Of a DNA stretch of 64,000 nucleotides, positions 33,606 through 55,037 are shown piece by piece. Where the stretch lies: contig NZ_UGNV01000001.1 of the NCBI RefSeq assembly GCF_900452395.1, forward strand, positions 1,389,501 through 1,453,500, read 5' to 3'. Each line of letters opens with the position of its first letter. The stretch's first letter is position 1. The translations under genes and the position numbers were made by a program. The notes beneath the pieces are model-generated. The model was not told the origin of the DNA. It searched no databases and saw only the letters and a program-made list of their open reading frames with translations. The DNA comes from Legionella beliardensis (GTDB lineage Bacteria; Pseudomonadota; Gammaproteobacteria; Legionellales; Legionellaceae).

Positions 33606-34994
33606 ATGCACTATCGAGCTAAACAAATAAATCAATCGGTATTTTGTGCTTACGATATACGCGGCATCATTGATGAAAATTTTGATGAGCATGCTTTTTA
33701 CAGTATTGGTCGTGCTATTGGTTGCCGTTTACATGCTTTAAATCGTCAAAAAATAATTGTTGCTCGCGATGGTCGTTTAACAAGTATGGGTTTATCAGCG
33801 GCTTTAAAGCAAGGACTACTCGATAGTGGCATAACGACGATAGACATAGGTGAGGTGCCTACGCCAGTGATGTATTTTGCCACATTTAAGTATGGCGTTG
33901 ATAGTGGGGTTATTGTAACGGGAAGTCATAATCCTGCCGATTATAATGGGATTAAGATTGTTTTAGCGGGTAAAACCTTAGTTCAAGAAGATATTAATAT
34001 ACTCTATAATCTTGTCTTAAATCAGACATTTATTAACGGCCAGGGTCAATCTGATTATTTGGATGTTGTTCCTGATTATATAGAGCGTATTCTTAACGAT
34101 GTTGTATTAAGGCGCCGCTTAAAAGTGGTTGTTGATTGTGGCAATGGGGTAGCTGGCGGAATTATTCCACAACTTCTGCAAAAGCTAGGTTGCGAGGTTA
34201 TCTCGCTTTATTGTGATGTCGATGGCCGTTTTCCTAATCATCATCCCGATCCATCCATTGAAGAAAACTTAGTAACGTTGCAACAAACCGTTCTCCAAAA
34301 TCAAGCAGACATTGGGCTTGCGTTTGATGGGGATGCTGATCGATTGGGTGTGGTAACTAACACAGGTAAAGTAATTTGGCCTGATCGCTTAATGATGCTT
34401 TATGCTCGTCACCTTTTAAAATCTAAACCGGGCGCTACCATTGTTTATGATGTGAAATGCTCGTCGCATTTAACAGATGTGATTACCGCTGCTGGCGGAC
34501 AGGCTCATATGTGTCCAACAGGACACTCAATTGTTAAAGGCGTAATGAAAAGTACGCAAGCAGCGCTAGCAGGTGAGATGAGCGGCCATCTTTTTTTTAA
34601 AGACAGATGGTATGGTTTTGATGATGCGCTGTATAGCGCTTGTCGTTTATTAGAAATAATTAGTGAGAATCCTTTATCAGCAGACGCGCAATTTCTTACA
34701 GTTCCTGATAGCGTAAATACGCCTGAGATTAAAATTCCTATTAGTAATAGTCAGAAATTTAACTTCATGCAACAATTTATTGAACATGCTGTATTTGATG
34801 CTATCAGAAAAATAAAGATTGATGGTTTGCGAGTTGAGTTTGAGCATGGTTGGGGGCTTATACGTGCTTCTAATACCACACCTTGTCTAGTCGCGCGTTT
34901 TGAAGCTCGAGACCACCTTAGTTTAAAAGCAATTCAGGAATTATTTAAGCAGCAATTGCATAGTATTGCAAAAGATCTTGTTATTCCTTTCTAG
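33606..34994 (+). CDS. Phosphomannomutase/phosphoglucomutase
   Basis: Interconverts hexose 6- and 1-phosphates; here probably mannose 6-phosphate to mannose 1-phosphate for GDP-mannose. The 462-aa product matches the AlgC/ManB type. Its four domains are marked by VFCAYDIRGIIDENF, the active-site serine loop TGSHNPADYNGIKI, the metal site AFDGDADRLGVV, the sugar-specificity loop GEMSGHLFFKDRWYGFDDA, and RASNTTPCLVARFEA (phosphate site). AGGAGG lies five bases before the ATG at 33606. It precedes the GDP-mannose pyrophosphorylase and glycosyltransferase genes, which suggests supply of an activated mannose donor to this locus. Confidence 0.94.
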   Translation: MHYRAKQINQSVFCAYDIRGIIDENFDEHAFYSIGRAIGCRLHALNRQKIIVARDGRLTSMGLSAALKQGLLDSGITTIDIGEVPTPVMYFATFKYGVDSGVIVTGSHNPADYNGIKIVLAGKTLVQEDINILYNLVLNQTFINGQGQSDYLDVVPDYIERILNDVVLRRRLKVVVDCGNGVAGGIIPQLLQKLGCEVISLYCDVDGRFPNHHPDPSIEENLVTLQQTVLQNQADIGLAFDGDADRLGVVTNTGKVIWPDRLMMLYARHLLKSKPGATIVYDVKCSSHLTDVITAAGGQAHMCPTGHSIVKGVMKSTQAALAGEMSGHLFFKDRWYGFDDALYSACRLLEIISENPLSADAQFLTVPDSVNTPEIKIPISNSQKFNFMQQFIEHAVFDAIRKIKIDGLRVEFEHGWGLIRASNTTPCLVARFEARDHLSLKAIQELFKQQLHSIAKDLVIPF

Positions 34995-35042
34995 CAAGAA
35001 TTGGGTTTAGATTAATAAATAAGAATATATAAAAGTAGTCTT

Positions 35043-36212
35043 CTATAGCCCTTTGTAAAGGGCCTCATAACGAGCTAACGTATTTTTGATATCATGCTGT
35101 GCTGCCATTTCAAAGCTTGCTTGGCCCATTTTTAAGCGTAATGCTTCCGATAAGTTCTTTATTATCTCTATTTTTTCAGCCAACTCAGAACTATTTCCTG
35201 GTTGAAAAAGGTAGCCATTTTTACCTTCTATAACTAAGTGAGGAAGCGCTAAAGCATCGGCTAAGATAACCGGTAAAGAAGCGGACATTGCTTCTAATGT
35301 TGCCAGGGATTGTAACTCGGCTGTGCTCGGCATACAAAATAGAGATGCTCGAAGATAGGCTTTACGTAAATCCTCTTCACTAATTACACCTAGAAATGCT
35401 ACTTTATCAGCAATATTTAAGCTTTTTGCCAGGTTTTTTAATTTATCACAAATTTCGCCATCGCCTACTATTTCTAAATAGATATTTAAATGAGATGGTG
35501 ACTTAGCAATAGCCTTAATGAGTATATCAATATGCTTTTCCTCAGCGATCCTGCCTACAAAAAGAACGATAAATTTATTATTTTTATCAATATACTCATT
35601 AGGCTTTAATTGATAGTGTTCTGAATTAATGCCGTTTGAAATAGTGATTATTGGTAAATTTAATTCCTTACTAACAGACTTTGCCGCTAAATCAGTAGGC
35701 ATAGTAATAGTTTGAACTTTGCTTAATACATTACGCATATCATAAAATAAGTATCTAATTAGCAAATTAATCAGCCAATTTGGTAGCGGTAAATAAGGTA
35801 TAATATTTTCTGGCACGACATGGACGGTGGCTATGATAGGTATCTGACGACGGTTAGATTCCTTGATAGCTAATCTACCAATTGTAAAATGACATTGAAT
35901 ATGTACTACATCCGGTTGCACTTGGTCAAAAATCTTTTTTACTTCTTTTTTAATTTGCCAAGGAAAACACATACGAAAAGTAGAGTGAGTCAGTATAGGG
36001 TGAGAACGTAAACGATATTCTGTGACGCCATGATTAGATGTGCTAAAACTTTTCCCTTTTTCACTAGCAGGCGCAATGACATAAACATCATGTCCTAACT
36101 GGCATAAGCCTTCTGCCAAACGTTGGCCAAAGCGTGCAGCGCCATTAATTTCCGGAGGATAAGTCTCAGCTACAATAATAATTTTTAATTTTTGCTTAGC
36201 AGTGCTAGACAT
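35043..36212 (-). CDS. Glycosyltransferase family 4 (copy A)
   Basis: A 389-aa GT-B fold retaining glycosyltransferase. The N-terminal half has VAETYPPEINGAARFGQRLA, the acceptor-side glycine loop, and VHIQCHFTIGRLAIKE. The C-terminal half has VLFVGRIAEEKHIDILIKAI and the donor site FCMPSTAELQSLATLEAMSA, where the usual ExxGxxxLEAM appears as ELQSLATLEAM. This resembles PimB-like GDP-mannose-dependent mannosyltransferases. It is a clear paralogue of the gene at 40792-42027. No signal or membrane segment is seen, so it acts at the cytosolic face. It is divergent from manC with an 81-bp gap, so the two promoters overlap. Mannosyl transfer is inferred from neighbours. Confidence 0.9.
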   Translation of the reverse strand: MSSTAKQKLKIIIVAETYPPEINGAARFGQRLAEGLCQLGHDVYVIAPASEKGKSFSTSNHGVTEYRLRSHPILTHSTFRMCFPWQIKKEVKKIFDQVQPDVVHIQCHFTIGRLAIKESNRRQIPIIATVHVVPENIIPYLPLPNWLINLLIRYLFYDMRNVLSKVQTITMPTDLAAKSVSKELNLPIITISNGINSEHYQLKPNEYIDKNNKFIVLFVGRIAEEKHIDILIKAIAKSPSHLNIYLEIVGDGEICDKLKNLAKSLNIADKVAFLGVISEEDLRKAYLRASLFCMPSTAELQSLATLEAMSASLPVILADALALPHLVIEGKNGYLFQPGNSSELAEKIEIIKNLSEALRLKMGQASFEMAAQHDIKNTLARYEALYKGL

Positions 36213-36293
36213 TTTGTAAGTAGTTGGCTAAAAAACCTTATCTCTAAATATAGCTTATAATAATTATTATTTACCTACCTATCAGGATGCTTG

Positions 36294-37748
36294 ATGATAT
36301 TGCCTATAATTTTAGCAGGTGGTACTGGAAGTCGTCTTTGGCCCTTATCGAGAGAACTCTATCCCAAACAATTTTTAAAGCTTTTTGAAACACAAACTAT
36401 GTTGCAAATGACGCTAGCCCGTTTACAAGGCTTAGAGCATAAGCCACCAGTTATTATTTGTAATGAGGAACATCGCTTTCTTGTTGCCGAGCAATTAAGG
36501 CAGGTAAATAGTGAGGGCTCAATTATTCTTGAGCCCTTTGGAAGAAATACTGCCCCAACGATTGCCATTGGCGCTTTATTAGCCTTAAAACAAGATGATG
36601 ATCCTGTTTTACTGACTCTTCCAGCTGATCATATGATTAGCGATATAGATAAATTTCATCAGGCAGTCAATGAAGCGTTAGTTTATGCTAACCAAGGTAA
36701 ATTAGTTGCTTTTGGGGTATCTCCAGATAAACCTGAAATAGGTTATGGTTATATTAAAGCTTCTAAAAATAACCAAGCAATGGCTATTGAGCAATTCATA
36801 GAAAAGCCTGATTTACAAACTGCGCAATCTTTTTTGCAAAGCGGAGATTACTATTGGAATAGTGGGATATTTATGTTCCGCGCTAGTGTTTATTTAAATG
36901 AGTTACAACAATATAGAAGCGACATTTATGCAAGTTGTGTAGAAGCAGTTAATCATGGGCATAAAAATAATGGGTATATTTATATTAGTAAAGAGCATTT
37001 TTTAGAATGCCCAAGTCAGTCAATAGATTATGCCGTAATGGAAAAAACTACTCACGGTGTTGTTGTTCCTTTAAATGCTAATTGGTCAGATGTAGGCTCG
37101 TGGTGTTCAATTTGGGACATTTCGCAAAAAGATTTACAAAATAATGTACAACTCGGGGGGGATGTTGTGCATTTTGATAGTTCTAATAATTTAGTCAATA
37201 GCGAAGATAAATTAGTCGTAACGATGGGGCTTAAGGACACCATCATCATTAATACTAAAGATGTCTTACTTGTGGCGACCAAAGATAATGTGCAAAAAAT
37301 TAAGCAGGTAGTTGAGGAGCTTAATAAAAAGGAGCGTAAAGAAGTTAAAATACACCGCGAAGTGCATCGACCATGGGGAAAATTTGATTCACTTGAGAAT
37401 GGGAAACGTTATCAAGTAAAACATCTAACCATCTTACCAGGTCAAAAGATTTCTACACAAATGCACCATCATCGCGCTGAGCACTGGATAATCGTCTCAG
37501 GCTCCGCTTTAATTACTAAAGGCGAAGATACTTTTTTATTAACTGAAAATGAATCCACCTATATTCCAGTAGGTAAAGTACATACTTTGGAAAATCCGGG
37601 AATTATTCCTCTGGAAGTGATTGAGGTGCAAACAGGGTCTTACTTAGGAGAAGATGATATCGTTCGCTTTGAAGACCGGTATGGACGTGATACTTCCGAA
37701 GATGATTCGCCAGAGCTCTTAGAGCCGCAAGATAATAACATTAAATAA
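36294..37748 (+). CDS. manC: Mannose-1-phosphate guanylyltransferase / mannose-6-phosphate isomerase
   Basis: Bifunctional enzyme for GDP-mannose, 484 aa, full length for the AlgA/ManC type II class. The N-terminal nucleotidyltransferase domain has ILAGGTGSRLWPLSRELYPK with the GTP loop and the Lys, LTLPADHMI, IEKPDLQTAQSFL and YYWNSGIFMFRA. The C-terminal cupin domain, about residues 345-470, is the isomerase: RPWGKFDSLENGKRYQVKHL and MHHHRAEHWIIVSGSA with metal-binding His residues. The start is the ATG at 36294 with AGGA six bases upstream (a TTG at 36291 is in frame). Its stop overlaps an ATG of the next gene, so it heads an operon with the ABC exporter genes. Confidence 0.95.
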   Translation: MILPIILAGGTGSRLWPLSRELYPKQFLKLFETQTMLQMTLARLQGLEHKPPVIICNEEHRFLVAEQLRQVNSEGSIILEPFGRNTAPTIAIGALLALKQDDDPVLLTLPADHMISDIDKFHQAVNEALVYANQGKLVAFGVSPDKPEIGYGYIKASKNNQAMAIEQFIEKPDLQTAQSFLQSGDYYWNSGIFMFRASVYLNELQQYRSDIYASCVEAVNHGHKNNGYIYISKEHFLECPSQSIDYAVMEKTTHGVVVPLNANWSDVGSWCSIWDISQKDLQNNVQLGGDVVHFDSSNNLVNSEDKLVVTMGLKDTIIINTKDVLLVATKDNVQKIKQVVEELNKKERKEVKIHREVHRPWGKFDSLENGKRYQVKHLTILPGQKISTQMHHHRAEHWIIVSGSALITKGEDTFLLTENESTYIPVGKVHTLENPGIIPLEVIEVQTGSYLGEDDIVRFEDRYGRDTSEDDSPELLEPQDNNIK

Positions 37749-37783
37749 TGTTATTTAATGTAAGCTTTAAAAGGGAAAATAAT

Positions 37784-38659
37784 ATGGCAAAGTCTGTACT
37801 TCAGGCAAAATATGATAGAAATTCACTTTTTTATTTAAAGCTATTGCTTTTGTTAGTGATTCTACAATTAGTTGCCTGCTCCCGTCCCTCTAAGCCTGTG
37901 ATATCAGGGTATGTGGAAGGCCAGTATATTTATATCTCTACCTTATCTGCAGGTACCTTAAAATCATTACAAGTTACGCCTGGCATGCAGATTAAAAAAA
38001 ATCAGGTGCTATTTACCTTAGAGCCGTTACTTACTGATGAAAATTTAACAATCGCGAAAGCTCGCGTTCAAGCTGCACTTATTGAAATAAAAAAGGCTGA
38101 AACACGCTACAAATTATTAGAAACTAATAAGAATAGAAATGCGCTTTTATTGAAAAAAGATATTATTTCTAAAGAAGTGTTTGAACAGAGTGTGATGGAA
38201 TATCAGCAAGCTTTGGAGGATAAGAATAATGCATTAGCAAATCTTACTTCATTTAAAGCAGAAGAGAAAAAGGCGCATTGGGAAATACAACAGAAAACAG
38301 TTAGCGCGCCTAAAGATGGTATTGTTTTCGATACCTACTATGCGGCTGGAGAAAATATACAAGCAGGTTCACCTATATTATCTTTACTTGAGCCAGCTCA
38401 AATTAAAATTGTATTTTTTGTTCCTGAAATATTATTAGGTAAGCTACGTATTAATCAGCCAATCAAGGTGCATTATGACGGCGCTCAAGCGCCCATCGAC
38501 GCTAAAATTACTTATATTTCACCTAAGGCTTCTTATAATCCGCCGATGATTTATAGTACTGAAGAAAGACAACGATTAGTGTTTCGTATTGAAGCGTCAC
38601 CTGTGTTAAAAACAAAAATAACAGCTCATCCAGGGCAACCTGTTTCTATTGATTTATGA
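37784..38659 (+). CDS. HlyD-family membrane fusion lipoprotein
   Basis: A 291-aa periplasmic adaptor linking an ABC exporter to an outer-membrane channel. The N-terminal signal ends in a lipobox LVAC, so the protein is probably a lipoprotein. Biotinyl-lipoyl halves surround a coiled-coil hairpin: VEGQYIYISTLSAGTLKSLQ and VTPGMQIKKNQVLFTLEP, the helices near 95-165, then KTVSAPKDGIVFDTYYAAGE. IKVHYDGAQAPIDAKITYIS is the beta-barrel domain. It resembles YbhG/YhiI. The frame begins at 37748, overlapping the manC stop; I prefer the ATG at 37784 with AAGGGAA upstream. The ABC ATPase gene follows after 13 bp. Confidence 0.9.
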   Translation: MAKSVLQAKYDRNSLFYLKLLLLLVILQLVACSRPSKPVISGYVEGQYIYISTLSAGTLKSLQVTPGMQIKKNQVLFTLEPLLTDENLTIAKARVQAALIEIKKAETRYKLLETNKNRNALLLKKDIISKEVFEQSVMEYQQALEDKNNALANLTSFKAEEKKAHWEIQQKTVSAPKDGIVFDTYYAAGENIQAGSPILSLLEPAQIKIVFFVPEILLGKLRINQPIKVHYDGAQAPIDAKITYISPKASYNPPMIYSTEERQRLVFRIEASPVLKTKITAHPGQPVSIDL

Positions 38660-38672
38660 ATTAGGACAATTA

Positions 38673-39584
38673 ATGGAAAAAACCAATTTAATTATTGATG
38701 CCAATAATTTATACAAAAGTTTTTCTAATGTTCCTACCATTAAAAATGTCAGCATTAAGGTTGAGTATGGTGAAATTTTCGGTTTTTTAGGGCCTAATGG
38801 CTCTGGAAAAACCACAATTATTAGAATGTTATGTGGCTTATTAACGCCAGACGCAGGTTCTGGCACCTTTATGAATTACGACATTCTTACCGAAATAAAT
38901 GCTATAAAAAAACACATAGGCTATGTCCCGCAGTTTTTTAGCTTATATAAACAATTAACAGTGTATCAAAATATTCTACTGACTGCAGAGTTATACAGTG
39001 TTCCGCATCGTTATGAACGTGTTGAGCAGGTGATACAACAATTAGGGCTATCTAGTGTGCGTAATCAATTGTCAGGAACGCTTTCAGGCGGCTGGAAGCA
39101 AAGATTAGCATTAGCAGCAGCAATTGTTCATGAACCGCTCCTCTTATTGTTAGATGAGCCTACTGCCAATGTGGATCCAGAGTCTAGCCAACGGTTTTGG
39201 CGCCTTATGCATCATTTATCCTCGGAAGGTATGACCATTTTACTAAGCTCGCATAATATGAATGAAGTACAGCACTGCAATCAAATTGCTTATATTTGCG
39301 AAGGGCAGGTAATTGTGCAGGGTAAGATAAATGAAATTATTAAGCATTTAAACCTTACAACCTGGGAAGTTCAGGGACCAAATATTATTAATTTAGCCAA
39401 AGAGCTTGAAGTGATTCCGGGCATTGAACAAATCAACGTTTATTTTAATAGACTCCATATCAGTGGGAAAGACTCGCATGCTCTCGCGCAGGCGATTAAT
39501 CCCTATATGAAAGACCCACAGCTAGTATGGACTAAAATTACGCCTGAGCTGGAAGACGCTTTTATTTGGTTAGCTAAATATTAA
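38673..39584 (+). CDS. ABC transporter ATP-binding protein
   Basis: A 303-aa ATPase of the DrrA/YbhF type that powers the ABC-2 permease next to it. Walker A is GPNGSGKTTIIRML near residue 40, the Q loop is VPQFFSLYKQLTV, the signature is LSGGWKQRLALA (WKQ in place of the common QQQ), Walker B is LLLLDEPTANVDP near 158, and the switch His is in LLSSHNMNEV. One ATPase unit is present, unlike YbhF, which has two. The start is the ATG at 38673 with AGGA six bases upstream, 13 bp after the adaptor gene's stop. The C-terminal 70 residues form the usual small accessory domain. Confidence 0.95.
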   Translation: MEKTNLIIDANNLYKSFSNVPTIKNVSIKVEYGEIFGFLGPNGSGKTTIIRMLCGLLTPDAGSGTFMNYDILTEINAIKKHIGYVPQFFSLYKQLTVYQNILLTAELYSVPHRYERVEQVIQQLGLSSVRNQLSGTLSGGWKQRLALAAAIVHEPLLLLLDEPTANVDPESSQRFWRLMHHLSSEGMTILLSSHNMNEVQHCNQIAYICEGQVIVQGKINEIIKHLNLTTWEVQGPNIINLAKELEVIPGIEQINVYFNRLHISGKDSHALAQAINPYMKDPQLVWTKITPELEDAFIWLAKY

Positions 39585-39695
39585 GTTGAGTCAAGTGCAT
39601 TAATAAGATAAATTAAATTAATCAGGAATTTAGTTACTATTGTTCTTAGCGCTGTAGAGCATTAATTTTATTAAAAATTAACCGTAAGAGTCTAA

Positions 39696-40835
39696 ATGTC
39701 TAAAATTAATAATATGGCGTTACGCTTTTTCGCAATTCAGAAAAAAGAATTCATTGTCATGATGCGCGAAAAAAGAACTTATTTTTTCCTCGTTTTAATT
39801 CCTTTAATTCAAGTCGTTTTATTTGGATTTATCATTAATAGTGACGCGAAAAACCTCCCTACGGTCGTAGTAACTCAAGATACATCCCCCTTTGTTAATA
39901 GCATTGTTCATTCGTTTATTAATTCAGGCTATTTTAAAATATTACCTTTTAGTGGTAATGCCAAAGAAGCAGAAAATTTGATGGCGGCAGGAAAGGTAAA
40001 ATTTATTATTTATATTCCTGAGCATTTTTCGCGAGATTTAGTCAATAATAAGCAACCCCATTTGTTATTAGAAGGTGATGCCAGTGATCCTATGGTCGTA
40101 GGTAATGCTTTTGCTGCTGCTAATATTATTGCAAGCGAGGCGCTTAACAGAGATGCTGTAGGGCATTTAAGTTATCTTGCTAGTAAAGAGCCAAGTTTTA
40201 TTATTGACAGGCATGCTAAATATAATCCTGCTGCCAAAGCACAATTCCATACGCTGCCGGGTTTACTGGCTTCTATCACTACCATCTCATTAACCATGTT
40301 AACGGCAATCTCCATTATTAGCGAGTATGAGGCAGGTAATATGGAAATGTTGTTAATCTCGCCTATTCACCCTTTGGAAGTCATTTTTGGTAAAATTTTC
40401 CCTAATCTTATATTAGGCTATATCTTATTTTATTTAATTTTAATTATTACCCGATGGTTATTCCATGTGCCATTTCATGGCAGCCTATTACTCCTGTCGA
40501 TAGTCGTTTTTCCTTTTTTTATCGCGAACTTAGGTATAGGAATAATAACGTCAGCCATATCAAAAACCCAATTTCAGGCAGCAAATATTGCCAGTACCTA
40601 TGCGCTACCGGCCATTTTATTTTCAGGGTTTATGTTTCCTTTTGCAGCCATGCCTTATTGGGCGCAGTGGTTAGGTAATTTACTACCGCCTACCTATTTT
40701 TTGCGAATTACCAGTAACATCATGTTAAAAGATGCTAATTTAAAAGCTATTTGGCCGGATTTTTGGCCTATTTTACTGTTTGCTTGCATTGTTATTGTTG
40801 TTGGTGATCGCTTGTATCGGCAAACGTTAGACTAG
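39696..40835 (+). CDS. ABC-2 type permease
   Basis: A 379-aa inner-membrane permease of the YbhR/YhhJ type. The first membrane segment is YFFLVLIPLIQVVLFGFII, followed by a large periplasmic loop of about 140 residues. Five more segments follow from residue about 190 (LPGLLASITTISLTMLTAIS; FPNLILGYILFYLILIIT). YEAGNMEMLLISPIHPLEVI is the signature loop of the family, and FSGFMFPFAAMPYWAQWLGN is the late helix pair. It should form a dimer driven by the preceding ATPase. It starts 111 bp after the ATPase gene. Its last 44 bases overlap the 3' end of the convergent glycosyltransferase gene. Confidence 0.92.
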   Translation: MSKINNMALRFFAIQKKEFIVMMREKRTYFFLVLIPLIQVVLFGFIINSDAKNLPTVVVTQDTSPFVNSIVHSFINSGYFKILPFSGNAKEAENLMAAGKVKFIIYIPEHFSRDLVNNKQPHLLLEGDASDPMVVGNAFAAANIIASEALNRDAVGHLSYLASKEPSFIIDRHAKYNPAAKAQFHTLPGLLASITTISLTMLTAISIISEYEAGNMEMLLISPIHPLEVIFGKIFPNLILGYILFYLILIITRWLFHVPFHGSLLLLSIVVFPFFIANLGIGIITSAISKTQFQAANIASTYALPAILFSGFMFPFAAMPYWAQWLGNLLPPTYFLRITSNIMLKDANLKAIWPDFWPILLFACIVIVVGDRLYRQTLD

Positions 40836-47600: not shown

Positions 47601-48541
47601 GTAAACGGAAATCTCACAATGATAGCCAAGGTTTGTTTGCGACTAATTTGCTAATTTGTCCATCCATTGACTGGAATATTGGTTTTAAACACTTATGTAC
47701 GGCTACTCAAGATGAAATGCTTGCTATGCAAGAAAACTACTATCCACTTGAAGAGCTGCTGTCTGACTTAGTAATGACTAAGGGAATTAATATCAATCTA
47801 CCGGTTGTAATAGGTTATCTAGGTGATTTTTCTGACTCATTCTCACAATTAGCAAATATTGGCGCTACTAGTATGGGCCTTGAATTAATGATTTATTACG
47901 CCATTGATCATAATAATCAGTGGACGATGCATATTAACTACGTAGAGGGAAATTTTTCATCCGTACTTATCAACGAAATAGGTATGTGTTTTAGGAAAAT
48001 GTTAACTCAAGCCATTGATACCCCAAAGTTATTAACCTATGAGTTATATTCTAAATTTTCAAATAATAAAGCATTGCATGACTATGCGGAGTCACTGCAT
48101 TCTTCTGCAATTACCGTAAAGACAAACATGGAAGGCGACATTCTAAGTGATGCATTGCATTTATTTTTTGAAACTTATCCATCCATTCATTTAACTGTTA
48201 ATAAGGGGTCTAAAAATGACGCGTTGTTTAGATTGAGTAGCCTAGATAAACGCTTGGTTCAAGTAGTCATTATAGATGCTAATAGTTATGCGAAATCGGA
48301 AAACCTATCTGATGAGGAAGGCTTATTAAAACTTATAGACCAGATAAATCATTTATTTGTTGATGATAATCAGTTTTCACCAGTTATTGTTGGAATCATG
48401 GGTAGTCAAGTTTTAGATACAAATGCCTTTAAAAATAAACATAGCATTTTCCTGCAAGCATTAGACTCAAGCCAATATGAATTAAATTTAATTGAACTAA
48501 TAAAAAAAATAACACCTCAAATTGTAAATAAAATATCCTAA
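44666..48541 (+). CDS. Assembly-line protein 1: FAAL - carrier - condensation domain
   Basis: A 1291-aa multidomain enzyme. Residues about 9-580 are a fatty acyl-AMP ligase: FLQYTSGSTDNPKGVVLTHK (ATP loop), SWLPPYHDMGLIG and GPNFAYELCARRVSE (FAAL type), and YLKTGDLGF. It should activate a fatty acid and load it on the carrier at about 630-700 (FELGIDSLTAATL, Ser near 660). Residues about 715-1160 resemble a condensation domain, but HHxxxDG is NHIISDV: the second, catalytic His is kept and the first His and the Gly are lost. The tail, about 1160-1291, weakly resembles the N-terminal half of the FkbH-type unit in the next protein. GGAGG precedes the ATG. The next gene starts within 20 bp, forming an operon. 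Confidence 0.92.
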   Translation: MFNKYPKIEYQHLCDILAYRNTHNPESIAYRFLGPDEQEELLTSGELFIEVAKLANLLLEYAKPGDRVILAAQPGLEYIIGFFACLRAGMIAVPVFPPANPQMASRLLHIIADAKPSLILGDKPVVSSLKKGQLATRFLPNRLGKLMGLSGELASLFDVFKQQQLPVIATSQRKHYTTTLPPVTIGAGTIAFLQYTSGSTDNPKGVVLTHKNLLANFAIMKQATRQTPESHIYSWLPPYHDMGLIGSILEPLYANIMTTFMSPQDFIKDPVRWVKHISKYRCTITSGPNFAYELCARRVSEAVLATLDLSCLDVAVNGAEPVSAKTLALFYDTFKQAGLKQSALFPCYGLAEATLMVTAEADFSPKKVIQVSLQDLSAHRVVLEEKSATRVELVSSGKAHLDVAIVDPNTQTRCRSDEVGEIWVHGDSVAQGYYRNEQETHKIFKNRIKDSNDPKEYLKTGDLGFFHDNHLFVCGRVKDLIIINGQNYYPQDLEKVVAHANAHIKKGNVIAFAKPGQVTERLVIVAELKGPADEEVYQAIITDIQKALSAAFYLTAQCIYLMPKRSIPKTTSGKLQRRKCAELIADDKIKALFTYCATEESQPSDQQASATWLQALLNTPEALRQDKLIAELQQLLAQVLNLPNSQDIDPKMSLFELGIDSLTAATLNERLKERLLINLSLNELFKNHTLVNLSHYLLSKIPATVKLPAVNASILPLDSNQKYPCSFTQESILKHYSINKEVAKYNLYTSVLLDKQVSHDAIIEKIRAFITSHDSLAIKFVKDHDTYQLFYSKQLDDACIYSFKLANNLDARDKAFQEQVLTQFDLLGGLLFRFVIFEYDSGEHEILFVVNHIISDVYSLIVAQQELINSGGMKKQLAQAEFNIAERSLYSRDNSDVYQLKDYGLRRLASLKPIKLHTQSKTKNELFKTQTFKLCPTNTMHTLMNQFHTTGFSVCVALMSLLLNALSLNEKIQLLIPLSKRKSHNDSQGLFATNLLICPSIDWNIGFKHLCTATQDEMLAMQENYYPLEELLSDLVMTKGININLPVVIGYLGDFSDSFSQLANIGATSMGLELMIYYAIDHNNQWTMHINYVEGNFSSVLINEIGMCFRKMLTQAIDTPKLLTYELYSKFSNNKALHDYAESLHSSAITVKTNMEGDILSDALHLFFETYPSIHLTVNKGSKNDALFRLSSLDKRLVQVVIIDANSYAKSENLSDEEGLLKLIDQINHLFVDDNQFSPVIVGIMGSQVLDTNAFKNKHSIFLQALDSSQYELNLIELIKKITPQIVNKIS

Positions 48542-48558
48542 CATAGGAAATGAAGTTT

Positions 48559-51500
48559 ATGCACATAGATAGCTTTAATGATCCATACCAACATTTATGT
48601 GACATACTCGCTTACCGCAACGCGAATAACCCCGAAGGTCTTGCCTACCGATTTTTAGGGCCTGATGAGCATGAGGAATTATTAACCTCTAGGGAATTGT
48701 TTATTGAGGTTGCGAAGCTTGCTAATTTGCTCTTAGAGTATGCCAAACCAGGTAATCGGGTTATTTTAGCAGCGCAACCTGGGCTAGAGTATATTATTGG
48801 TTTTTTTGCCTGCTTGCGCGCTGGGATGATTGCGGTGCCTGTTTTTCCGCCCGCTAATCCGCAAATGACCGCTCGCTTACTACACATTATTGCCGATGCC
48901 AAACCGAGTTTGATTTTAGGCGATAAGCCTGTTGTAAGCTCACTTAAAAAAGGTCAGTTGGCGACTCGCTTTTTACCCAATCGCCTAGGTAAGCTGATGG
49001 GTTTATCAGGTGAACTCGCAAGCTTATTTGACGTCTTTAAGCAGCAGCAGTTGCCGGTGATTGCGACTAACCAGCGCAAGCACTACACCACGACCTTACC
49101 ACCGGTAACCATCGACGCAAACACCATCGCGTTTTTGCAATACACTTCAGGGTCCACGGGTAATCCCAAAGGGGTGGTGTTAACGCATAAAAATTTATTA
49201 GCCAATATGGCGATTATAAAGCAGGCGACACGCCAAACTCCACAAAGCCATCTTTATTCTTGGTTGCCGCCTTACCATGATATGGGGTTAATAGCTGGTC
49301 TCCTAGAGCCCCTATACGCCAATATTATGACTACCTATACGTCGCCACAGGATTTTATTAGGGATCCAGTCAGGTGGGTTAAGCATATATCTAAGTACCG
49401 TTGTACAATGACTGGCGGCCCTAATTTTGCCTATGAACTTTGCGCACGACGCGTCTCAGAGGCAGTGCTGGCCACCTTGGATTTAAGCTGTTTGGATGTG
49501 GCTGTCAATGGGGCTGAGCCAGTTTCAGCAAAAACTATGGCGCTATTTTATGACACGTTTAAACAGGCAGGCTTAAAGCAAAGTGCGTTATTTCCTTGCT
49601 ACGGCTTAGCAGAAGCTACGTTAATGGTGTCGGCGGAAGCGGATTTTTCGCCCAAGAAAGTGATTCAGGTGGCCTTACAAGACTTAAGCGCGCATCGGGT
49701 CGTCTTAGAAGACAAATCAACCACCAGTGTGGAGTTGGTGAGCTCAGGTAAGGCCTGTGTGGATGTGCAAATTGTGGATCCTAACACCCAAACACGTTGC
49801 CAAAGCGATGAGGTGGGCGAAATCTGGGTGCATGGTGATTCAATTGCTCAAGGGTATTATCAAAATGAAAAAGAAACCTACAAGATTTTTAAAAATCAAA
49901 TTAAAGACAGCAATGAGCCGAAGGAGTACCTCAAGACCGGCGATTTAGGTTTTTTTCATGATAACCATTTATTCGTTTGTGGACGCGTTAAAGATTTAAT
50001 CATCATCAACGGCCAAAATTATTACCCTCAAGATCTAGAAAAAGTGGTCACCCATGCTAATGCCCACATTAAAAAAGGCAATGTCATTGCTTTTGCGAAA
50101 CCTGGACAAGTCACCGAGCGCTTAGTGATTGTGGCCGAATTAAAAGGACCGGCCGATGAGGAGGTGTATCAAGCCATCATTACCGACATACAAAAAGCGC
50201 TATCAGCGGCGTTCCACCTCACTGCGCAATTTATTTATTTAATGCCTAAGCGCAGCATTCCTAAAACCACCAGTGGCAAATTACAGCGGCGTAAGTGTGC
50301 GGAATTAATTGCCGATGACAAAATAAAAGCACTTTTTGCTTATTGTGCTGCAGAGGACAGCCAGCCCGTCACTGATCAACAAGCCAATGCCACTTGGCTG
50401 CAAGCACTCTTAAGTACCCCTGAAGTGCTGCGACAAGACAAACTTATCGCTGAGCTACAACAGTTGCTAGCCCAAGTGCTTAATCTACCGAACGCACACA
50501 ACATTGATCCTAAAATGAATCTTTTTGAGTTAGGGATTGATTCGCTGCAGCTCGGTGAGCTATTAACTAAACTCAATGCTAAGCTTCACAGCCTTTGTAA
50601 TTTAAATGCAGCGTTAATTCTTGATAACCCAACCATTCTACATTTAGCCGATGTTATTGAAAAAGCTGTTAAAAAACTAGACTATAATGAAATTGAGCAA
50701 ATATTATCTAAGCATTCACTAGCTAGCCAATTTGAGTACTCAACTTTTTACCCTATGACGGATAGACAACTCAATTTCTATTTAAGCGATAAGTTAGCAC
50801 CTAGTAAAGGTGCTTATAATATTGCAGTTGCCGTAAAATTAAATTTTAAAATTGACCTTTCTAAACTTAAAAGTACGCTATTAAAACTCATTACAGCCCA
50901 TTCAGTATTTAAATCTAAAGTTAAGCTGCAAAATGATAAATTATATGTTAATGAAGAAGGTAAAGCGCTTTCTCTTGCGCAATTTTTTATAAATATAAAA
51001 TGCGAGGACAAAGAACTTAACTCCTTATTTAATCAATACACCATTGAGCCCTTCGAAACTGAGCAGGGGCTTTTATTTAGAATTATATTGATTGAATGCC
51101 AAGGGAATTATTATTTACAATTAGTAGCGCACCACTTAATTGCTGATGGGATATCATTAAAGCTATTTGTAGAGCAATTTTTACGGCTTTATCATCAAAA
51201 TAAACTTAGCAGAGCGCACCAATATGCAGAATTTGCTTCTTGGCTTAAACAATATAAATCATTGCCGCAATATAATCAGGCTCAAGTCTATTGGAATAAT
51301 TTAATTGAGCATGCGTCTTCTAAGAGTTATTTAAATCAGCCAAAGGGATGGGATATTGCCTTAAATCAAGATGAAATTAATTATGAGCAAAGCGAGCAAA
51401 TTAAGCAATTTTGTCGAGCACATCATATTAGTGTGCAAAATTTATTAATGTATAGTTATTATTTAGTGCTAAGCAGGAAACTTGCAACGACCCAATTAAC

Positions 51501-53532
51501 GATAGGAACTTTATTTTCTGGACGAATCTCTGAGCGTTGGCAAAATACTTTGGGGGTCTTTGTAAATCTATTACCAGTGGTATTTAATTACACATCCTAC
51601 CCAGATGTTTTACAAGGTATTAAGAATTTACAAAAGCAAATTATTCATTCTGGCGAATATGCTGATTATACCCAGCCAAATCGTTTATTAAACAGTAAAA
51701 ATAAAAAGCTTTTTGAATTTGTTTTTGTTTATCAAGTGACAAGTCAAGCAAATCAAGGCATTGACATTGTTTATAAAAACAATGGCCTAGGCCTAGATCC
51801 GTTTGTTTTAGAGGTGCGCAATGATGGCACAATAGAGCTACTTGTTAAATATAACCAAACCTTATTTTCTGCTAAGGACATTGAAAGCTTTATTAAAGAA
51901 ATGAAAAACGTATGCCTAGCTATTGTCAACAATACCTTAGTGCACCAAAATTCTTTCCCCGTAGAGAAATTTGACCATTTAACATCGCCAAAAAAATCGA
52001 TTGGCTTATTATCAACATTTACCATTGAACCAATTAAGCCATTTATAGAATATTGGTTTGACCAAATTGACCAGCACTATGATTTAGAAATTGGTGATTT
52101 TAATCAAGTGATTCAGAATTTAATTAATGTAAATAGCCTACTTTATAAACACAAAGTTAACTTTCTTTTTATTTCTCTTTATGATTGGTTTAAGGATAAA
52201 TTAGATGAAAGCATAATCACTGATTTAATCAATGCGCTTGAGTTTTATGCACACAATACTACCTATCCCATTTTCTTAATGTTTACCCCACCGCCGCCAG
52301 ATTTAACAGCAGAGATAAATTTTAATGACATGGAATTAACGGTGCAAAATCATTTTAAACAAGTTGGAACTGTTTATGTTAAAACCCATGCTGATTTCTT
52401 AAGTGTTTCTGCAGTCGCTAATTATTTTGACCAGTTAACTTACCAGCAGGGCAGCATACCCTATACCCAAGAACTATATCTGGCTTTAGCTACCTATTCG
52501 GTAAGGCAATTACACTGCCTACAACGAGCCCCTAAAAAAGTGATTGTGATTGATTGTGATAATACTTTATGGGAAGGAGAAATTGGCGAAGTAAGTTTTA
52601 AAGGAATAAAAATTAATCCTAATCATTTGCAATTACAAGCTAAGCTAAAAGAGTTAAGATCAAATGGATTTTTATTGGCATTAAGCAGTAAAAATACCTT
52701 AGAGGATGTGCAGTTAGCGTTTGAAAAGCGCAAGGAAATGGTTCTTAAATGGAGCGATATTGTACTTGCTAAGGTTGATTGGAATAATAAAGCAACTAAC
52801 ATTCTAGCTATAGCCGAGGCGCTTAATCTAAGCTTAAATTCATTTATTTTTATTGATGATAATCCCTTGGAGTGCCATGCCGTAAAAACTGCTCTTCCGG
52901 ACGTTGAGGTTATCCAATTTCCTAAAGAACAAGCTGATATTAAACAGTTTTTAGCGAATATTTGGAGCTTTGATTTACCTAAAAAAACCAAAGAAGATTC
53001 ATTAAGAACTGAATTTTATAACCAAGAGAAATACCGAGAGAGTATTAAAAAATCTGCACTTAATCTTAATGAGTTTATTAAGCAGCTTAATTTACAAATT
53101 AATATTGCTCCTTTAAAACAAGAAGATATTTCTCGAGTTTCTCAGTTATCTATGAGAACAAATCAATTCAATACAACGACTATCCGGCGTGATGAAAGTC
53201 AAATTATTGATTTTGTAAAACAAGAAAATTCAAATATATATACTGTGAGTGTTGCAGATAAGTTTGGAGATTATGGGTTAGTCGGTGTTCTCATGATTTA
53301 TTGGCTTAAAGACCGTCTAGTGGTAGACAGCATGCTATTAAGTTGCCGCGCTTTAGGTCGTGGCGTTGAGCAACAAATGCAGCAAAAACTAATTGATTTG
53401 TGTCAGCAAAATCAAGTCAAAACGATTGAATATAAATTTATAAAAACTAAAAGAAACGATCCGGCGCAGCAATTTTTAGATTCTATCTATACTAAACTAA
53501 ATTTGGATAATTATTTAGTTATTTTAAGTTGA
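48559..53532 (+). CDS. Assembly-line protein 2: FAAL - carrier - condensation - FkbH-type HAD
   Basis: A 1657-aa multidomain enzyme. Residues about 9-580 are a FAAL nearly identical to that of protein 1 (ATP loop here FLQYTSGSTGNPKGVVLTHK), followed by a carrier with Ser near 661 (FELGIDSLQLGEL). A canonical condensation domain follows (VAHHLIADGISLKLFVEQFL near 857). Residues about 1150-1657 form an FkbH-like unit: an SGNH-like N-terminal part (LLSTFTIEPIKPFIEYWF), the HAD site VIDCDNTLWEGEIGE near 1330, FIFIDDNPLECHAVK, and a GNAT-like end (SMRTNQFNTTTIRR; RALGRGVEQQMQQ). FkbH enzymes make glyceryl-ACP from 1,3-bisphosphoglycerate. The start is the ATG at 48559, ten bases after AGGA; 48550 is an alternative. 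The stop overlaps a TTG of the next frame. Confidence 0.92.
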   Translation: MHIDSFNDPYQHLCDILAYRNANNPEGLAYRFLGPDEHEELLTSRELFIEVAKLANLLLEYAKPGNRVILAAQPGLEYIIGFFACLRAGMIAVPVFPPANPQMTARLLHIIADAKPSLILGDKPVVSSLKKGQLATRFLPNRLGKLMGLSGELASLFDVFKQQQLPVIATNQRKHYTTTLPPVTIDANTIAFLQYTSGSTGNPKGVVLTHKNLLANMAIIKQATRQTPQSHLYSWLPPYHDMGLIAGLLEPLYANIMTTYTSPQDFIRDPVRWVKHISKYRCTMTGGPNFAYELCARRVSEAVLATLDLSCLDVAVNGAEPVSAKTMALFYDTFKQAGLKQSALFPCYGLAEATLMVSAEADFSPKKVIQVALQDLSAHRVVLEDKSTTSVELVSSGKACVDVQIVDPNTQTRCQSDEVGEIWVHGDSIAQGYYQNEKETYKIFKNQIKDSNEPKEYLKTGDLGFFHDNHLFVCGRVKDLIIINGQNYYPQDLEKVVTHANAHIKKGNVIAFAKPGQVTERLVIVAELKGPADEEVYQAIITDIQKALSAAFHLTAQFIYLMPKRSIPKTTSGKLQRRKCAELIADDKIKALFAYCAAEDSQPVTDQQANATWLQALLSTPEVLRQDKLIAELQQLLAQVLNLPNAHNIDPKMNLFELGIDSLQLGELLTKLNAKLHSLCNLNAALILDNPTILHLADVIEKAVKKLDYNEIEQILSKHSLASQFEYSTFYPMTDRQLNFYLSDKLAPSKGAYNIAVAVKLNFKIDLSKLKSTLLKLITAHSVFKSKVKLQNDKLYVNEEGKALSLAQFFINIKCEDKELNSLFNQYTIEPFETEQGLLFRIILIECQGNYYLQLVAHHLIADGISLKLFVEQFLRLYHQNKLSRAHQYAEFASWLKQYKSLPQYNQAQVYWNNLIEHASSKSYLNQPKGWDIALNQDEINYEQSEQIKQFCRAHHISVQNLLMYSYYLVLSRKLATTQLTIGTLFSGRISERWQNTLGVFVNLLPVVFNYTSYPDVLQGIKNLQKQIIHSGEYADYTQPNRLLNSKNKKLFEFVFVYQVTSQANQGIDIVYKNNGLGLDPFVLEVRNDGTIELLVKYNQTLFSAKDIESFIKEMKNVCLAIVNNTLVHQNSFPVEKFDHLTSPKKSIGLLSTFTIEPIKPFIEYWFDQIDQHYDLEIGDFNQVIQNLINVNSLLYKHKVNFLFISLYDWFKDKLDESIITDLINALEFYAHNTTYPIFLMFTPPPPDLTAEINFNDMELTVQNHFKQVGTVYVKTHADFLSVSAVANYFDQLTYQQGSIPYTQELYLALATYSVRQLHCLQRAPKKVIVIDCDNTLWEGEIGEVSFKGIKINPNHLQLQAKLKELRSNGFLLALSSKNTLEDVQLAFEKRKEMVLKWSDIVLAKVDWNNKATNILAIAEALNLSLNSFIFIDDNPLECHAVKTALPDVEVIQFPKEQADIKQFLANIWSFDLPKKTKEDSLRTEFYNQEKYRESIKKSALNLNEFIKQLNLQINIAPLKQEDISRVSQLSMRTNQFNTTTIRRDESQIIDFVKQENSNIYTVSVADKFGDYGLVGVLMIYWLKDRLVVDSMLLSCRALGRGVEQQMQQKLIDLCQQNQVKTIEYKFIKTKRNDPAQQFLDSIYTKLNLDNYLVILS

Positions 53533-53540
53533 GGATCAGG

Positions 53541-55037
53541 ATGATGGAAAAAAATTTTTCGGATTTACAAAAAATGTCTCCCGCGGAGTTACTCCAAGAG
53601 ATTCAAAAGCGTAAAACGAATAAAGTGAATGAGTTAGTCACTGACAATGAATTCGAACAATTTTTAATTGATTTATGGCAATCCTATTTTCCAGACAGTC
53701 ATTTTGATACACACACTGATTTTTTTTCTCTTGGCGGGACGTCATTGCAAGCGGTCATGTTCTTATCAAAAATTAAGAGCAAATATAATATTGAATTTGA
53801 CTTAATTGACATGTTTAAAGCCACAACAATTGCAGCGCAAGCTAAGTTAATTAAGGATACTTTAGATAATCATAAAGAAGAGGGTAAGTCCTTTGATTAC
53901 CAAGCAGATATTAATTTAATAAAGCAAATTAATTTGAGCAGTGACATTAAACCTGTTTCGAATAAATTAGATAATATTTTGCTAACTGGTGCTTCTGGGT
54001 TTTTAGGTATTCATTTGCTTAAAGAATTGCTAACCAACACAGACGCAGTTATTTTTTGTATTATGCGTGCAACATCGAAAGAGGAGGGCTTAGCTCGATT
54101 ATTAAAAATTGCTAAAGCTAATAAAATTACTTTGACTACGGCTGAGCAATGTAGAATTCAGTGTTTATGCGGCGACATAGCTCAAAAAAATTTAGGGTTA
54201 TCGGAACCTGATCTGACATATGTAACCGAATGTTGCGATTTAATTATTCATTCTGCAGCCGCTGTGAACTTTGTTTATCCTTATGAGCGCTTGCGTGAAA
54301 CGAATGTGTTAAGCCTTATTGAGTTAATTAAAATCGCCGCAACCTATAAATTAAAATCCATTCATTTAATATCAACCATTGGCGTATTTAATAATCAGTT
54401 TAATTCTTTAAATAAAATTAATGAAAATACACCCTTATTAGAATCAGCGCATCTTAATGGTTATTTTCAGTCAAAATGGGTAATTGAAAAGATAAGTGAG
54501 ATTGCCAAAGAAAAGGGATTACCGATAGCAATTTATAGACCAAGTGGTATTACCATTAACTCTAAAACGAAAGCTCTAGGCTCAGAGGATCTAACGTATC
54601 AACTCATGAAATTATCGATGAAAATGGGTGCCTTTGCCGATTTAAATACTATCATTGATGTAGTGCCTGTAGATTATGTAGCCGAAGCTATCACTAAACT
54701 CGTAGCTAATCATCCTTTTCAAAGTAATATTTATCATCTCACCTCAGGGGAGGCGTTAAGTAGTAAAGAGTTGATTAATCAATTACCTAAATCAAAATTT
54801 ATTAAAATATTATCTTATAAAGAGTATATCGAGCAGGCGAATAAGTTAGTGGCTAATACTGAGGATAAAGAATTACAAAGATTAGGAACCTTATTGATTA
54901 GTCATTTAGTTGTTAATTCTAATGCCACCGATAATCTCCCTACATTTAATTCCACTTTTACCGACTCTTTATTAAACTTAAAGAAAAAGCCTAAGCTTAA
55001 AGATACGTTATTATTAATTATGAAGGCTGCAAGTTAG
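53541..55037 (+). CDS. Assembly-line protein 3: carrier - thioester reductase
   Basis: A 498-aa protein with an N-terminal carrier domain (FFSLGGTSLQAVMFLSKIKS, phosphopantetheine Ser68) and a C-terminal NAD(P)H-dependent thioester reductase of the extended SDR type. The cofactor loop is LLTGASGFLGIHLLKELL near 148, IHSAAAVNFVYPYE and HLISTIGVFN follow, the catalytic Tyr308 and Lys312 lie in GYFQSKWVIEKI, and AIYRPSGITINSKT and DVVPVDYVAEAI are family segments. It should release the carrier-bound product as an aldehyde or alcohol, which explains the lack of a thioesterase. The start is the ATG at 53541, eight bases after the previous stop, with GAGGA upstream. It is the last gene of the operon. 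Confidence 0.93.
   Translation: MMEKNFSDLQKMSPAELLQEIQKRKTNKVNELVTDNEFEQFLIDLWQSYFPDSHFDTHTDFFSLGGTSLQAVMFLSKIKSKYNIEFDLIDMFKATTIAAQAKLIKDTLDNHKEEGKSFDYQADINLIKQINLSSDIKPVSNKLDNILLTGASGFLGIHLLKELLTNTDAVIFCIMRATSKEEGLARLLKIAKANKITLTTAEQCRIQCLCGDIAQKNLGLSEPDLTYVTECCDLIIHSAAAVNFVYPYERLRETNVLSLIELIKIAATYKLKSIHLISTIGVFNNQFNSLNKINENTPLLESAHLNGYFQSKWVIEKISEIAKEKGLPIAIYRPSGITINSKTKALGSEDLTYQLMKLSMKMGAFADLNTIIDVVPVDYVAEAITKLVANHPFQSNIYHLTSGEALSSKELINQLPKSKFIKILSYKEYIEQANKLVANTEDKELQRLGTLLISHLVVNSNATDNLPTFNSTFTDSLLNLKKKPKLKDTLLLIMKAAS

What the first reader, a model, noticed from the sequence alone, without database searches (positions are those of the whole stretch)
33606..55037. Putative assembly line for a mannosylated acyl-glycerol-type lipid with its own exporter
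Seen: three adjacent genes give FAAL-ACP-C, FAAL-ACP-C-FkbH and ACP-reductase, with no amino-acid adenylation domain and no thioesterase. Beside them lie phosphomannomutase, manC, two GT4 paralogues, an alpha/beta hydrolase and a complete adaptor/ATPase/permease/TolC set. Known: FAALs load fatty acids on carriers, FkbH proteins load glycerate on a carrier, C domains can form esters, and SDR reductases release aldehydes or alcohols. Inference: two fatty acids are esterified to the two hydroxyls of carrier-bound glycerate, the product is released by reduction as a diacyl glyceraldehyde or diacylglycerol, two mannoses are added, and the lipid is exported. That would be a route to a glycerolipid independent of glycerol-phosphate acyltransferases. 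I know of no described system with this exact set.
Basis: partly seen in the sequence, partly recalled or inferred. Interest (0 to 1): 0.88.

Follow-up and report, generated by a model that had tools for sequence, protein, structure and literature searches.

The report
Legionella assembly line for a glycolipid
A Legionella relative carries a conserved set of genes that looks built to join fatty acids to glycerate on carrier proteins, release the product by reduction, add mannose and export it, which would be an unusual way for bacteria to make a sugar lipid; the product itself has not been seen.

Summary
The gene set is real: FAAL-ACP-C, FAAL-ACP-C-FkbH and ACP-reductase, with no amino-acid adenylation or thioesterase domain found by Pfam in the three, beside ManC, PMM, two GT4, a hydrolase and HlyD/ABC/ABC-2/TolC. 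Expected motifs are present, though C1 reads NHxxSD. Nine of the twelve genes lie together, in another order, in two further Legionellaceae, G071 and Legionella brunensis (there split over two contigs); PMM, GT4b and the hydrolase do not. Close permease and full-length GT4a orthologues occur in the same 4 of 143 family genomes, the synthase in 3 of them; the fourth, G162, has the mannose/export set without synthase.

FAAL-ACP-C-FkbH-T is known: in vioprolide it links a fatty acid to carrier-bound glycerate by an ester (PMC8949500, PMC10099666, passages). So one ester is well founded. New are a second FAAL-ACP-C arm, an end by reduction instead of peptide extension, and linked mannose and export genes. 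Whether the second acyl goes on glycerate (diacyl) or on a hydroxyacyl chain, and whether release gives alcohol or aldehyde, is open. New variant of a known kind.

The parts
44666..48541 (+). Synthase protein 1: FAAL1-ACP1-C1 plus C-terminal tail (1291 aa)
   Evidence: Pfam/NCBIfam; orthologue in G071 47% over nearly full length
44699..46438 (+). FAAL1 domain (residues 12-591)
   Evidence: PRK05850 match; 3kxw best solved relative; 91.9% identical to FAAL2
46556..46756 (+). ACP1 (carrier Ser in GIDSL)
   Evidence: PF00550; motif
46823..48037 (+). Condensation domain C1, motif NHIISDV (NHIISD kept in G071 and G182)
   Evidence: PF00668 93 bits; motif
48038..48538 (+). Tail of protein 1, possibly related to the lobe in front of FkbH in protein 2
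   Evidence: hhalign of A2 to A1, 502 columns, probability 66.9, E 5.2e-05, (weak)
48550..53532 (+). Synthase protein 2: FAAL2-ACP2-C2-FkbH (1660 aa)
   Evidence: orthologue in G071 52% over full length
48595..50331 (+). FAAL2 domain (residues 16-594)
   Evidence: PRK05850 match
50452..50658 (+). ACP2 (carrier Ser in GIDSL)
   Evidence: PF00550; motif
50743..51948 (+). Condensation domain C2, motif HHLIADG; expected ester-forming domain
   Evidence: PF00668 187.7 bits; motif; HHxxxDG kept in G071 and G182
51997..52524 (+). N-terminal lobe of the FkbH protein (family label from recall)
   Evidence: found in front of FkbH in other genomes too
52534..53487 (+). FkbH (HAD) domain, motif DCDNTLW, expected glyceryl loader
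   Evidence: TIGR01686 300.8 bits; motif
53529..55037 (+). Synthase protein 3: ACP3 (carrier Ser in GGTSL) and terminal thioester reductase; overlaps gene 2 by 4 bases if the TTG start is used
   Evidence: nearest solved relative MxaA
53973..54908 (+). Reductase domain with GASGFLG and YFQSK
   Evidence: TIGR01746 257.1 bits; motifs
36291..37748 (+). ManC: mannose-1-P guanylyltransferase / mannose-6-P isomerase
   Evidence: TIGR01479; kept in G071 and G182
37748..38659 (+). HlyD-type periplasmic adaptor
   Evidence: PF13437; kept
38649..39584 (+). ABC ATPase
   Evidence: PF00005; kept
39696..40835 (+). ABC-2 permease
   Evidence: PF12698; orthologues at 70-72% in 3 other family genomes
43170..44543 (+). 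TolC-type outer-membrane channel
   Evidence: PF02321; TIGR01844 just under cut-off (211 against 225 bits); kept
35043..36212 (-). GT4a, the conserved glycosyltransferase of the set
   Evidence: PF00534; full-length orthologues in G071, G182, G162 and a broken copy in G142
40792..42027 (-). GT4b, accessory glycosyltransferase (window and G162 loci)
42020..42904 (-). Alpha/beta hydrolase with GHSFG, next to GT4b (window and G162 loci)
33603..34994 (+). Phosphomannomutase/phosphoglucomutase, one of two close copies in this genome
   Evidence: other copy 77% identical at G000:C1:448589

Best explanation
The locus encodes an NRPS-like assembly line for a fatty-acyl glycerol lipid that is mannosylated and exported. 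FAAL2 loads a fatty acid on ACP2. FkbH loads and dephosphorylates a D-glyceryl unit on ACP3. C2 joins them by an ester. FAAL1-ACP1-C1 delivers a second acyl group, most simply to the other glycerate hydroxyl. The ACP3-linked reductase releases the product, most likely down to the alcohol, giving a diacylglycerol. GT4a then adds a GDP-mannose-derived sugar and the HlyD/ABC-2/TolC exporter carries the glycolipid out; GT4b and the hydrolase are an optional second step. Shown: domains, motifs, conserved gene set. Inferred from the vioprolide precedent: FAAL2, FkbH and C2 steps. Inferred only: site of the second acyl, alcohol release, sugar, order of steps, export. If the unit is D-glycerate, reduction of its C1 leaves acyl groups at sn-1 and sn-2 with sn-3 free, the usual bacterial stereochemistry (from general knowledge). 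Odds I give: acyl-glycerol glycolipid made this way 0.55; exactly diacyl 0.35.
For: Domain calls above curated cut-offs for FkbH and thioester reductase, and Pfam AMP-binding, PP-binding and Condensation above gathering scores. Expected motifs present. The same nine genes lie together in G071 in another order. In L. brunensis (G182) seven lie on one contig, and C2-FkbH plus reductase on a 5.2 kb contig that starts inside FAAL2, as expected if near-identical FAALs broke the assembly. Precedent for FAAL-ACP-C-FkbH-T making an acyl-glycerate ester. FAAL1 and FAAL2 are 91.9% identical in the window and 86.5% in G071 but 56-58% across the two genomes, while C1 and C2 are 19-22% alike and each has its own orthologue: same acid pool, two different acceptor jobs. 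Nearest solved relative of the reductase is MxaA (its four-electron activity is recalled). The best NCBIfam model for GT4a is an alpha-monoglucosyldiacylglycerol synthase, far below its cut-off (118.1 against 400 bits), a weak hint of a lipid acceptor. ManC overlaps the adaptor gene by one base.
Against: G162 keeps adaptor, ATPase, permease, TolC, a ManC, both GT4 and the hydrolase with no synthase gene in the 40 kb read, and has no C2-FkbH match at 1e-50, so the sugar/export module is not tied to this synthase. GT4a's best solved matches are listed only as group 1 glycosyltransferases. C1's motif is NHxxSD, not HHxxxDG. The C-domain tree held no characterised ester-forming domain and left the place of C2 open. 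No product, substrate or expression data.
Confidence: 0.55

Rival explanations
1. Collinear reading: FAAL1-ACP1 is the loading module, C1-FAAL2-ACP2 is an extension module whose unit is a hydroxy fatty acid, and C2-FkbH-ACP3 adds glycerate. The product is an acyloxyacyl (estolide) ester with one glycerol hydroxyl used, then reduced, glycosylated and exported.
For: Gene order in the window is FAAL1-C1, FAAL2-C2-FkbH, ACP-R, exactly collinear. FAAL2 stands where an A domain would stand after C1. C1 and C2 are unlike enough to have different acceptors.
Against: In G071 protein 1 is encoded after proteins 2 and 3, so it need not act first. Among the twelve genes none looks like a fatty-acid hydroxylase. 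Both near-identical FAALs would have to take hydroxy acids.
Confidence: 0.25
2. The synthase and the mannose/export genes make two different things that travel together; the synthase product is an acyl-glyceraldehyde or aldehyde-derived signal, and the GT4/exporter act on ordinary lipid or a saccharide.
For: G162 has the mannose/export module without synthase beside it, and G142 a broken copy of it, also without synthase in the 40 kb read. The window's PMM is one of two close copies, so the sugar genes may serve another glycan.
Against: In the two other synthase loci the same exporter, GT4a and ManC are beside the synthase, with order changed; 3 of 3 synthase genomes in the family carry them.
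Confidence: 0.15
3. The three proteins are the lipid-loading end of a longer lipopeptide pathway; an amino-acid module elsewhere in the genome takes the acyl-glycerate on, as in corramycin.
For: Vioprolide and corramycin, the described FAAL-ACP-C-FkbH-T systems, continue into peptides, as do the C-FkbH-ACP-C-A proteins of G115 and G318. The window's genome has other FAAL-bearing long proteins, up to an open frame of 2185 codons, that I did not read.
Against: The carrier that should take glycerate is fused to a terminal reductase, and Pfam found no further AMP-binding domain among the twelve genes of the window locus.
Confidence: 0.05

Closest known systems
Vioprolide / corramycin starter modules (FAAL-ACP-C-FkbH/HAD-T), seen as passages in PMC8949500 and PMC10099666
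   Same: Same domain order FAAL-ACP-C-FkbH followed by a carrier; in vioprolide a fatty acid is esterified to carrier-bound glycerate by an ester-forming C domain
   Different: There the chain goes on into a peptide (corramycin: a 12-module NRPS-PKS whose legend lists a thioesterase). Here the carrier sits on a separate protein fused to a reductase, there is a second FAAL-ACP-C arm, and sugar and export genes are attached
   Same: C-FkbH-ACP-R in one polypeptide next to a FAAL, a glycosyltransferase and an exporter
   Different: Ketosynthase before the C domain, one FAAL, no ManC among the 8 ORFs of 250 aa or more, RND instead of ABC-2 exporter; 1 of 398 phylum genomes matched over the whole FkbH-ACP-R query, with 2 candidates scored per genome
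Terminal thioester reductases of NRPS/PKS (TIGR01746; nearest solved MxaA)
   Same: Above family cut-off, ACP fused in front
   Different: Expected substrate is acyl-glyceryl, not peptide or polyketide
Tripartite ABC-2 exporters with HlyD adaptor and TolC (NCBIfam PRK03598 'secretion protein HlyD' among the adaptor's hits, below cut-off; the names YbhG and, for glycolipid export, DevBCA-TolC are recalled)
   Same: Adaptor, ATPase, permease and channel present together
   Different: A separate clade: permease 70-72% identical in only three other family genomes, next best 58%; substrate untested
Legionella legionellol and surfactant loci (lpg2223-41 and bbc genes, from passages of PMC5126622 and PMC6598767)
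   Same: Lipid-related secreted metabolites of Legionella
   Different: [quoted passage not shown] sequences were not compared here

Membership tests
Vioprolide-type acyl-glycerate module | FAAL-ACP-C-FkbH in one polypeptide | tested here: met
Vioprolide-type acyl-glycerate module | Intact catalytic motifs in C and FkbH | tested here: met
   C2 HHLIADG, FkbH DCDNTLW
Vioprolide-type acyl-glycerate module | Acceptor carrier follows FkbH in the same polypeptide | tested here: not met
   Carrier starts the next, overlapping gene
Vioprolide-type acyl-glycerate module | Chain goes on to amino-acid modules | tested here: not met
   No amino-acid A domain found in the locus; reductase follows
Vioprolide-type acyl-glycerate module | Glyceryl loading and ester formation | not testable with these tools
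   needs enzymes
Terminal thioester reductase (TIGR01746) | Score above curated cut-off | tested here: met
   257.1 against 213.35 bits
Terminal thioester reductase (TIGR01746) | Rossmann GxxGxxG and Y-x3-K | tested here: met
   GASGFLG, YFQSK
Terminal thioester reductase (TIGR01746) | Four-electron release to alcohol | not testable with these tools
   only nearest solved relative MxaA
Tripartite HlyD/ABC-2/TolC exporter | Adaptor, ATPase, ABC-2 permease and channel in one locus | tested here: met
Tripartite HlyD/ABC-2/TolC exporter | Lipid substrate | not testable with these tools
GDP-mannose-dependent GT4 | GT4 domains and E-x7-E motif | tested here: met
GDP-mannose-dependent GT4 | Mannose donor used | not testable with these tools
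   ManC next to it supports it only by position
Ester-forming C domain clade | C2 groups with C domains that precede FkbH | tested here: inconclusive
   Such domains are scattered over the tree and the forks near C2 are open
Legionellol / Legionella surfactant loci | Homology of the gene sets | not tested
   known only from passages

The most novel reading that the evidence does not exclude
A dedicated carrier-protein assembly line that builds sn-1,2-diacylglycerol (or a close analogue) from phosphoglycerate and two free fatty acids, with no glycerol-phosphate acyltransferase, and hands it to its own mannosyltransferases and TolC exporter to make a secreted glycolipid.
Probability: 0.3. Interest if true: 0.82.

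Novelty: new variant of a known kind. Interest (0 to 1): 0.64.

Why it matters
Membrane-type glycerolipids are thought to come from glycerol phosphate and acyl-CoA or acyl-ACP transferases (general knowledge). An NRPS-like line that starts from phosphoglycerate and free fatty acids and ends in reduction would be a second, modular route to acyl-glycerols, with chain identity set by FAALs. In Legionellaceae it would point to a secreted glycolipid whose role (surfactant, surface or host contact) could be tested. The distant C-FkbH-ACP-R fusion beside a FAAL, a glycosyltransferase and an exporter in G518 suggests that such lines may be a wider, unrecognised kind.

Tried and rejected
Structure of C1 plus tail: AlphaFold2 on a three-row alignment gave mean pLDDT 33.4, so no fold search was made. 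C-domain tree, 37 rows: C1 and C2 are each a fully supported orthologue group, but neither falls in a clade that tells its acceptor; C domains before FkbH are scattered. Row choice: 53 motif matches, 46 kept by a homology filter; of the 46 I dropped 10 as false motif matches or duplicates and added G182's C1, giving 37. Exporter as evidence by itself: rejected, because 128 of 143 family genomes have some related permease at 1e-40; only the 70%+ clade is informative. The 51-58% permease relatives whose surroundings I read (7 loci) have no FAAL synthase beside them; one (G152) has an ORF with 22% identity to FAAL1 some 15 kb off; in the 4 of them scanned the gene upstream is a cNMP-binding protein. 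Whole-set search outside the family: 369 class genomes (14 hits at 1e-60) and 398 phylum genomes (9 hits at 1e-100), own genome included in both. Besides the window, G115, G318 and G628 match C2 and FkbH together; C-domain motifs before FkbH were also seen in G518, G543, G549, G569, G573, G590 and G738. I read the surroundings of G115, G318, G628, G518 and G543 only. These searches scored 2 candidates per genome, so absences are soft. The genome-contig scan used two narrow peptide patterns and found only L. brunensis. Plasmids: 192 records match protein 2, 0 over 80% of it; 14 match the G518 FkbH-ACP-R query, 0 over 80%. I did not test whether this genome has the ordinary glycerol-phosphate acyltransferases. 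Ten literature searches (listings seen) showed no paper describing this set; 'not in print' is limited to that library and those terms.
Full report
What was checked. The window is position 1389501-1453500 of contig 1 of a 3.54 Mb genome. Its family is that of Legionella: G182 of the same family has a contig 21 of 5234 bases with the same match as contig 21 (5234 bases) of Legionella brunensis ATCC 43878. The species of the window is not known.

Anatomy of the synthase. Protein 1 (44666-48541) is FAAL-ACP-C with a ~165-residue tail. Protein 2 (48550-53532) is FAAL-ACP-C followed by the two lobes of an FkbH protein. Protein 3 (53529-55037) is ACP-thioester reductase. FkbH and the reductase pass their curated cut-offs. 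Motifs: carrier Ser in GIDSL, GIDSL and GGTSL; C1 NHIISDV, C2 HHLIADG; FkbH DCDNTLW; reductase GASGFLG and YFQSK. C1 keeps the second His and the Asp, and NHIISD is the same in G071 and G182, so I treat C1 as active but unusual. Genes 1 to 3 are packed (8 bases between genes 1 and 2, then a 4-base overlap if the TTG start of gene 3 is used), and ManC overlaps the adaptor gene by one base.

Conservation. C2-FkbH was sought in 143 family genomes: 15 match at 1e-50, of which 3 match over the whole query (window, G071, G182; 53-54% between the window and the others) and 12 only in the FkbH part. In G071 both FAAL proteins, the reductase, adaptor, ATPase, permease, TolC, one GT4 (best match GT4a, 66%) and ManC lie within 18.5 kb in another order and orientation. 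In G182 FAAL1-C1 (in two frames around a run of N), adaptor, ATPase, permease, TolC, GT4a and ManC are on one contig, and C2-FkbH plus reductase on the 5234-base contig, which begins inside FAAL2. The likely cause is collapse of near-identical FAALs. The other 10 genomes of the window's own genus have no hit, so the locus is sporadic; transfer between lineages is plausible but was not tested by trees.

Co-occurrence. Permease at 70% or more: 4 of 143 family genomes (window, G071, G182, G162); the next best is 58%. GT4a at 58% or more over full length: the same 4 of 143, plus a broken copy in G142. Synthase: 3 of these 4. G162 has adaptor, ATPase, permease, GT4b, hydrolase, TolC, a ManC at 40% and GT4a in one stretch but no FAAL, FkbH or reductase in the 40 kb read. 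G162 does have 6 FAAL-like matches elsewhere; the one I read is FAAL-ACP-C followed by a weak AMP-binding match and a carrier, lipopeptide-like, some 160 kb away. So the sugar/export module can exist alone. One reading is that it acts on ordinary diacylglycerol in G162 and on the assembly-line product in the others, which would fit a diacylglycerol-like product; the other is that the two halves are independent. PMM, GT4b and the hydrolase are absent from the G071 and G182 loci (40 kb read of each); PMM has a close second copy in the window's genome, and one elsewhere in G071 and G182.

Two alike FAALs, two unlike C domains. FAAL1 and FAAL2 are 91.9% identical in the window and 86.5% in G071 but 56-58% between the genomes; C1 and C2 are 19-22% alike, while C1-C1 is 43.8% and C2-C2 47.5%. 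At DNA level the window tract is 88.6% identical over 1959 columns and stops inside the ACP; in G071 it is 89.5% over 1869 columns. The simplest explanation is repeated gene conversion of the FAAL part (inference). It suggests that both arms load the same acids and that the two C domains do different jobs. A weak profile match aligns the tail of protein 1 with the first lobe of FkbH, which would fit protein 1 being a protein-2-type gene that lost its HAD lobe.

Mechanism. Passages of two papers (PMC8949500, PMC10099666) say that vioprolide and corramycin have FAAL-ACP-C-FkbH-T first modules, that FkbH domains load and dephosphorylate D-1,3-bisphosphoglycerate (the vioprolide FkbH was shown to activate D-3-phosphoglycerate), and that in vioprolide an ester-bond-forming C domain links the fatty acid to glycerate. 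The original report (Auerbach 2018) was seen only as a citation. Protein 2 plus the ACP of protein 3 is that architecture, split over two genes. The reductase then stands where peptide extension would follow. The second arm can be read in two ways: acylation of the second glycerate hydroxyl (diacyl), or a collinear module C1-FAAL2-ACP2 that makes an acyloxyacyl chain. I prefer the first because protein 1 is encoded last in G071 and none of the twelve genes looks like a hydroxylase, but the margin is small. The reductase's best solved relative is MxaA; that MxaA reduces to the alcohol is recalled. A glycosyltransferase needs a hydroxyl acceptor, so alcohol release fits the GT4 genes better than aldehyde.

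Wider relatives. In G115 and G318 (same class) C-FkbH-ACP is followed by C-A-ACP-C-thioesterase; a ketosynthase and ketoreductase stand before it, in G115 in the same protein with a row of carriers, in G318 in the neighbouring protein. In G518 (another class) one protein has KS-ACP-C-FkbH-ACP-reductase beside a FAAL gene, a radical SAM protein, a weakly scored GT, a methyltransferase and an RND transporter. With the FkbH-ACP-R part of G518 as query, 9 of 398 phylum genomes match at 1e-80 and 7 of 48 genomes of its class, but only G518 itself over the whole query. So gene sets of this shape, an acyl-glyceryl line ended by a reductase, occur at least twice.

Literature. Ten searches of the open library listed no description of this set. 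A comparative study of 15 Legionella species (PMC5126622; outline with abstract, first of two parts of the results, one discussion section read) reports many clusters and names legioliulin, legiobactin and legionellol as the only solved structures. The FAAL review PMC11837247 (two passages seen) has no occurrence of glycerol, reductase or diacyl in its main text. A secreted surfactant of L. pneumophila is called TolC-dependent in a title cited by PMC6598767, which makes an exported lipid plausible in this family.

Verdict. Observation confirmed; interpretation partly supported. It is a new variant of a known kind: the vioprolide-type acyl-glycerate starter turned into a stand-alone, reductively ended line with its own sugar and export genes.

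Noticed in passing
window 55086-57878 (-): 930-aa ankyrin-repeat protein with DUF5617; weak match to NCBIfam's T4SS AnkG model (41.4 bits against a cut-off of 500), so it may be a Dot/Icm-effector type protein; it lies between the reductase gene and tRNA-Met (58130-58206).
   Followed up: no
L124/L125 (G142 C1:2498001-2538000): A remnant of the mannose/export module: adaptor and ManC near full length, ATPase match ends at residue 76, GT4a split by an insert; ORFs of 281 and 286 aa recur, like insertion sequences; no FAAL, FkbH or reductase match.
   Followed up: partly
L113 (G518 C45): FAAL gene plus KS-ACP-C-FkbH-ACP-reductase protein with radical SAM, GT, methyltransferase and RND genes: a second acyl-glyceryl-type line ended by a reductase.
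   Followed up: partly
window 44692-46647 and 48585-50543: Near-identical DNA tract (88.6%) of the two FAAL genes that stops inside the ACP; same pattern in G071 (89.5%): looks like gene conversion, and probably broke the L. brunensis assembly.
   Followed up: yes
L042, L063 (G115, G318): Ketosynthase-ketoreductase (with a row of carriers in G115) and C-FkbH-ACP-C-A-ACP-C-thioesterase: polyketide-glycerate-amino-acid type lines.
   Followed up: no
L090, L094, L095, L096: Related HlyD/ABC/ABC-2 exporters with TolC nearby lie next to a gene for a cyclic-nucleotide-binding protein in these four loci; L090 also has an enolase gene there.
   Followed up: no
window 37748-38659: The adaptor has a lipoprotein-like start (LVAC after a hydrophobic stretch; lipobox label from recall).
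   Followed up: no
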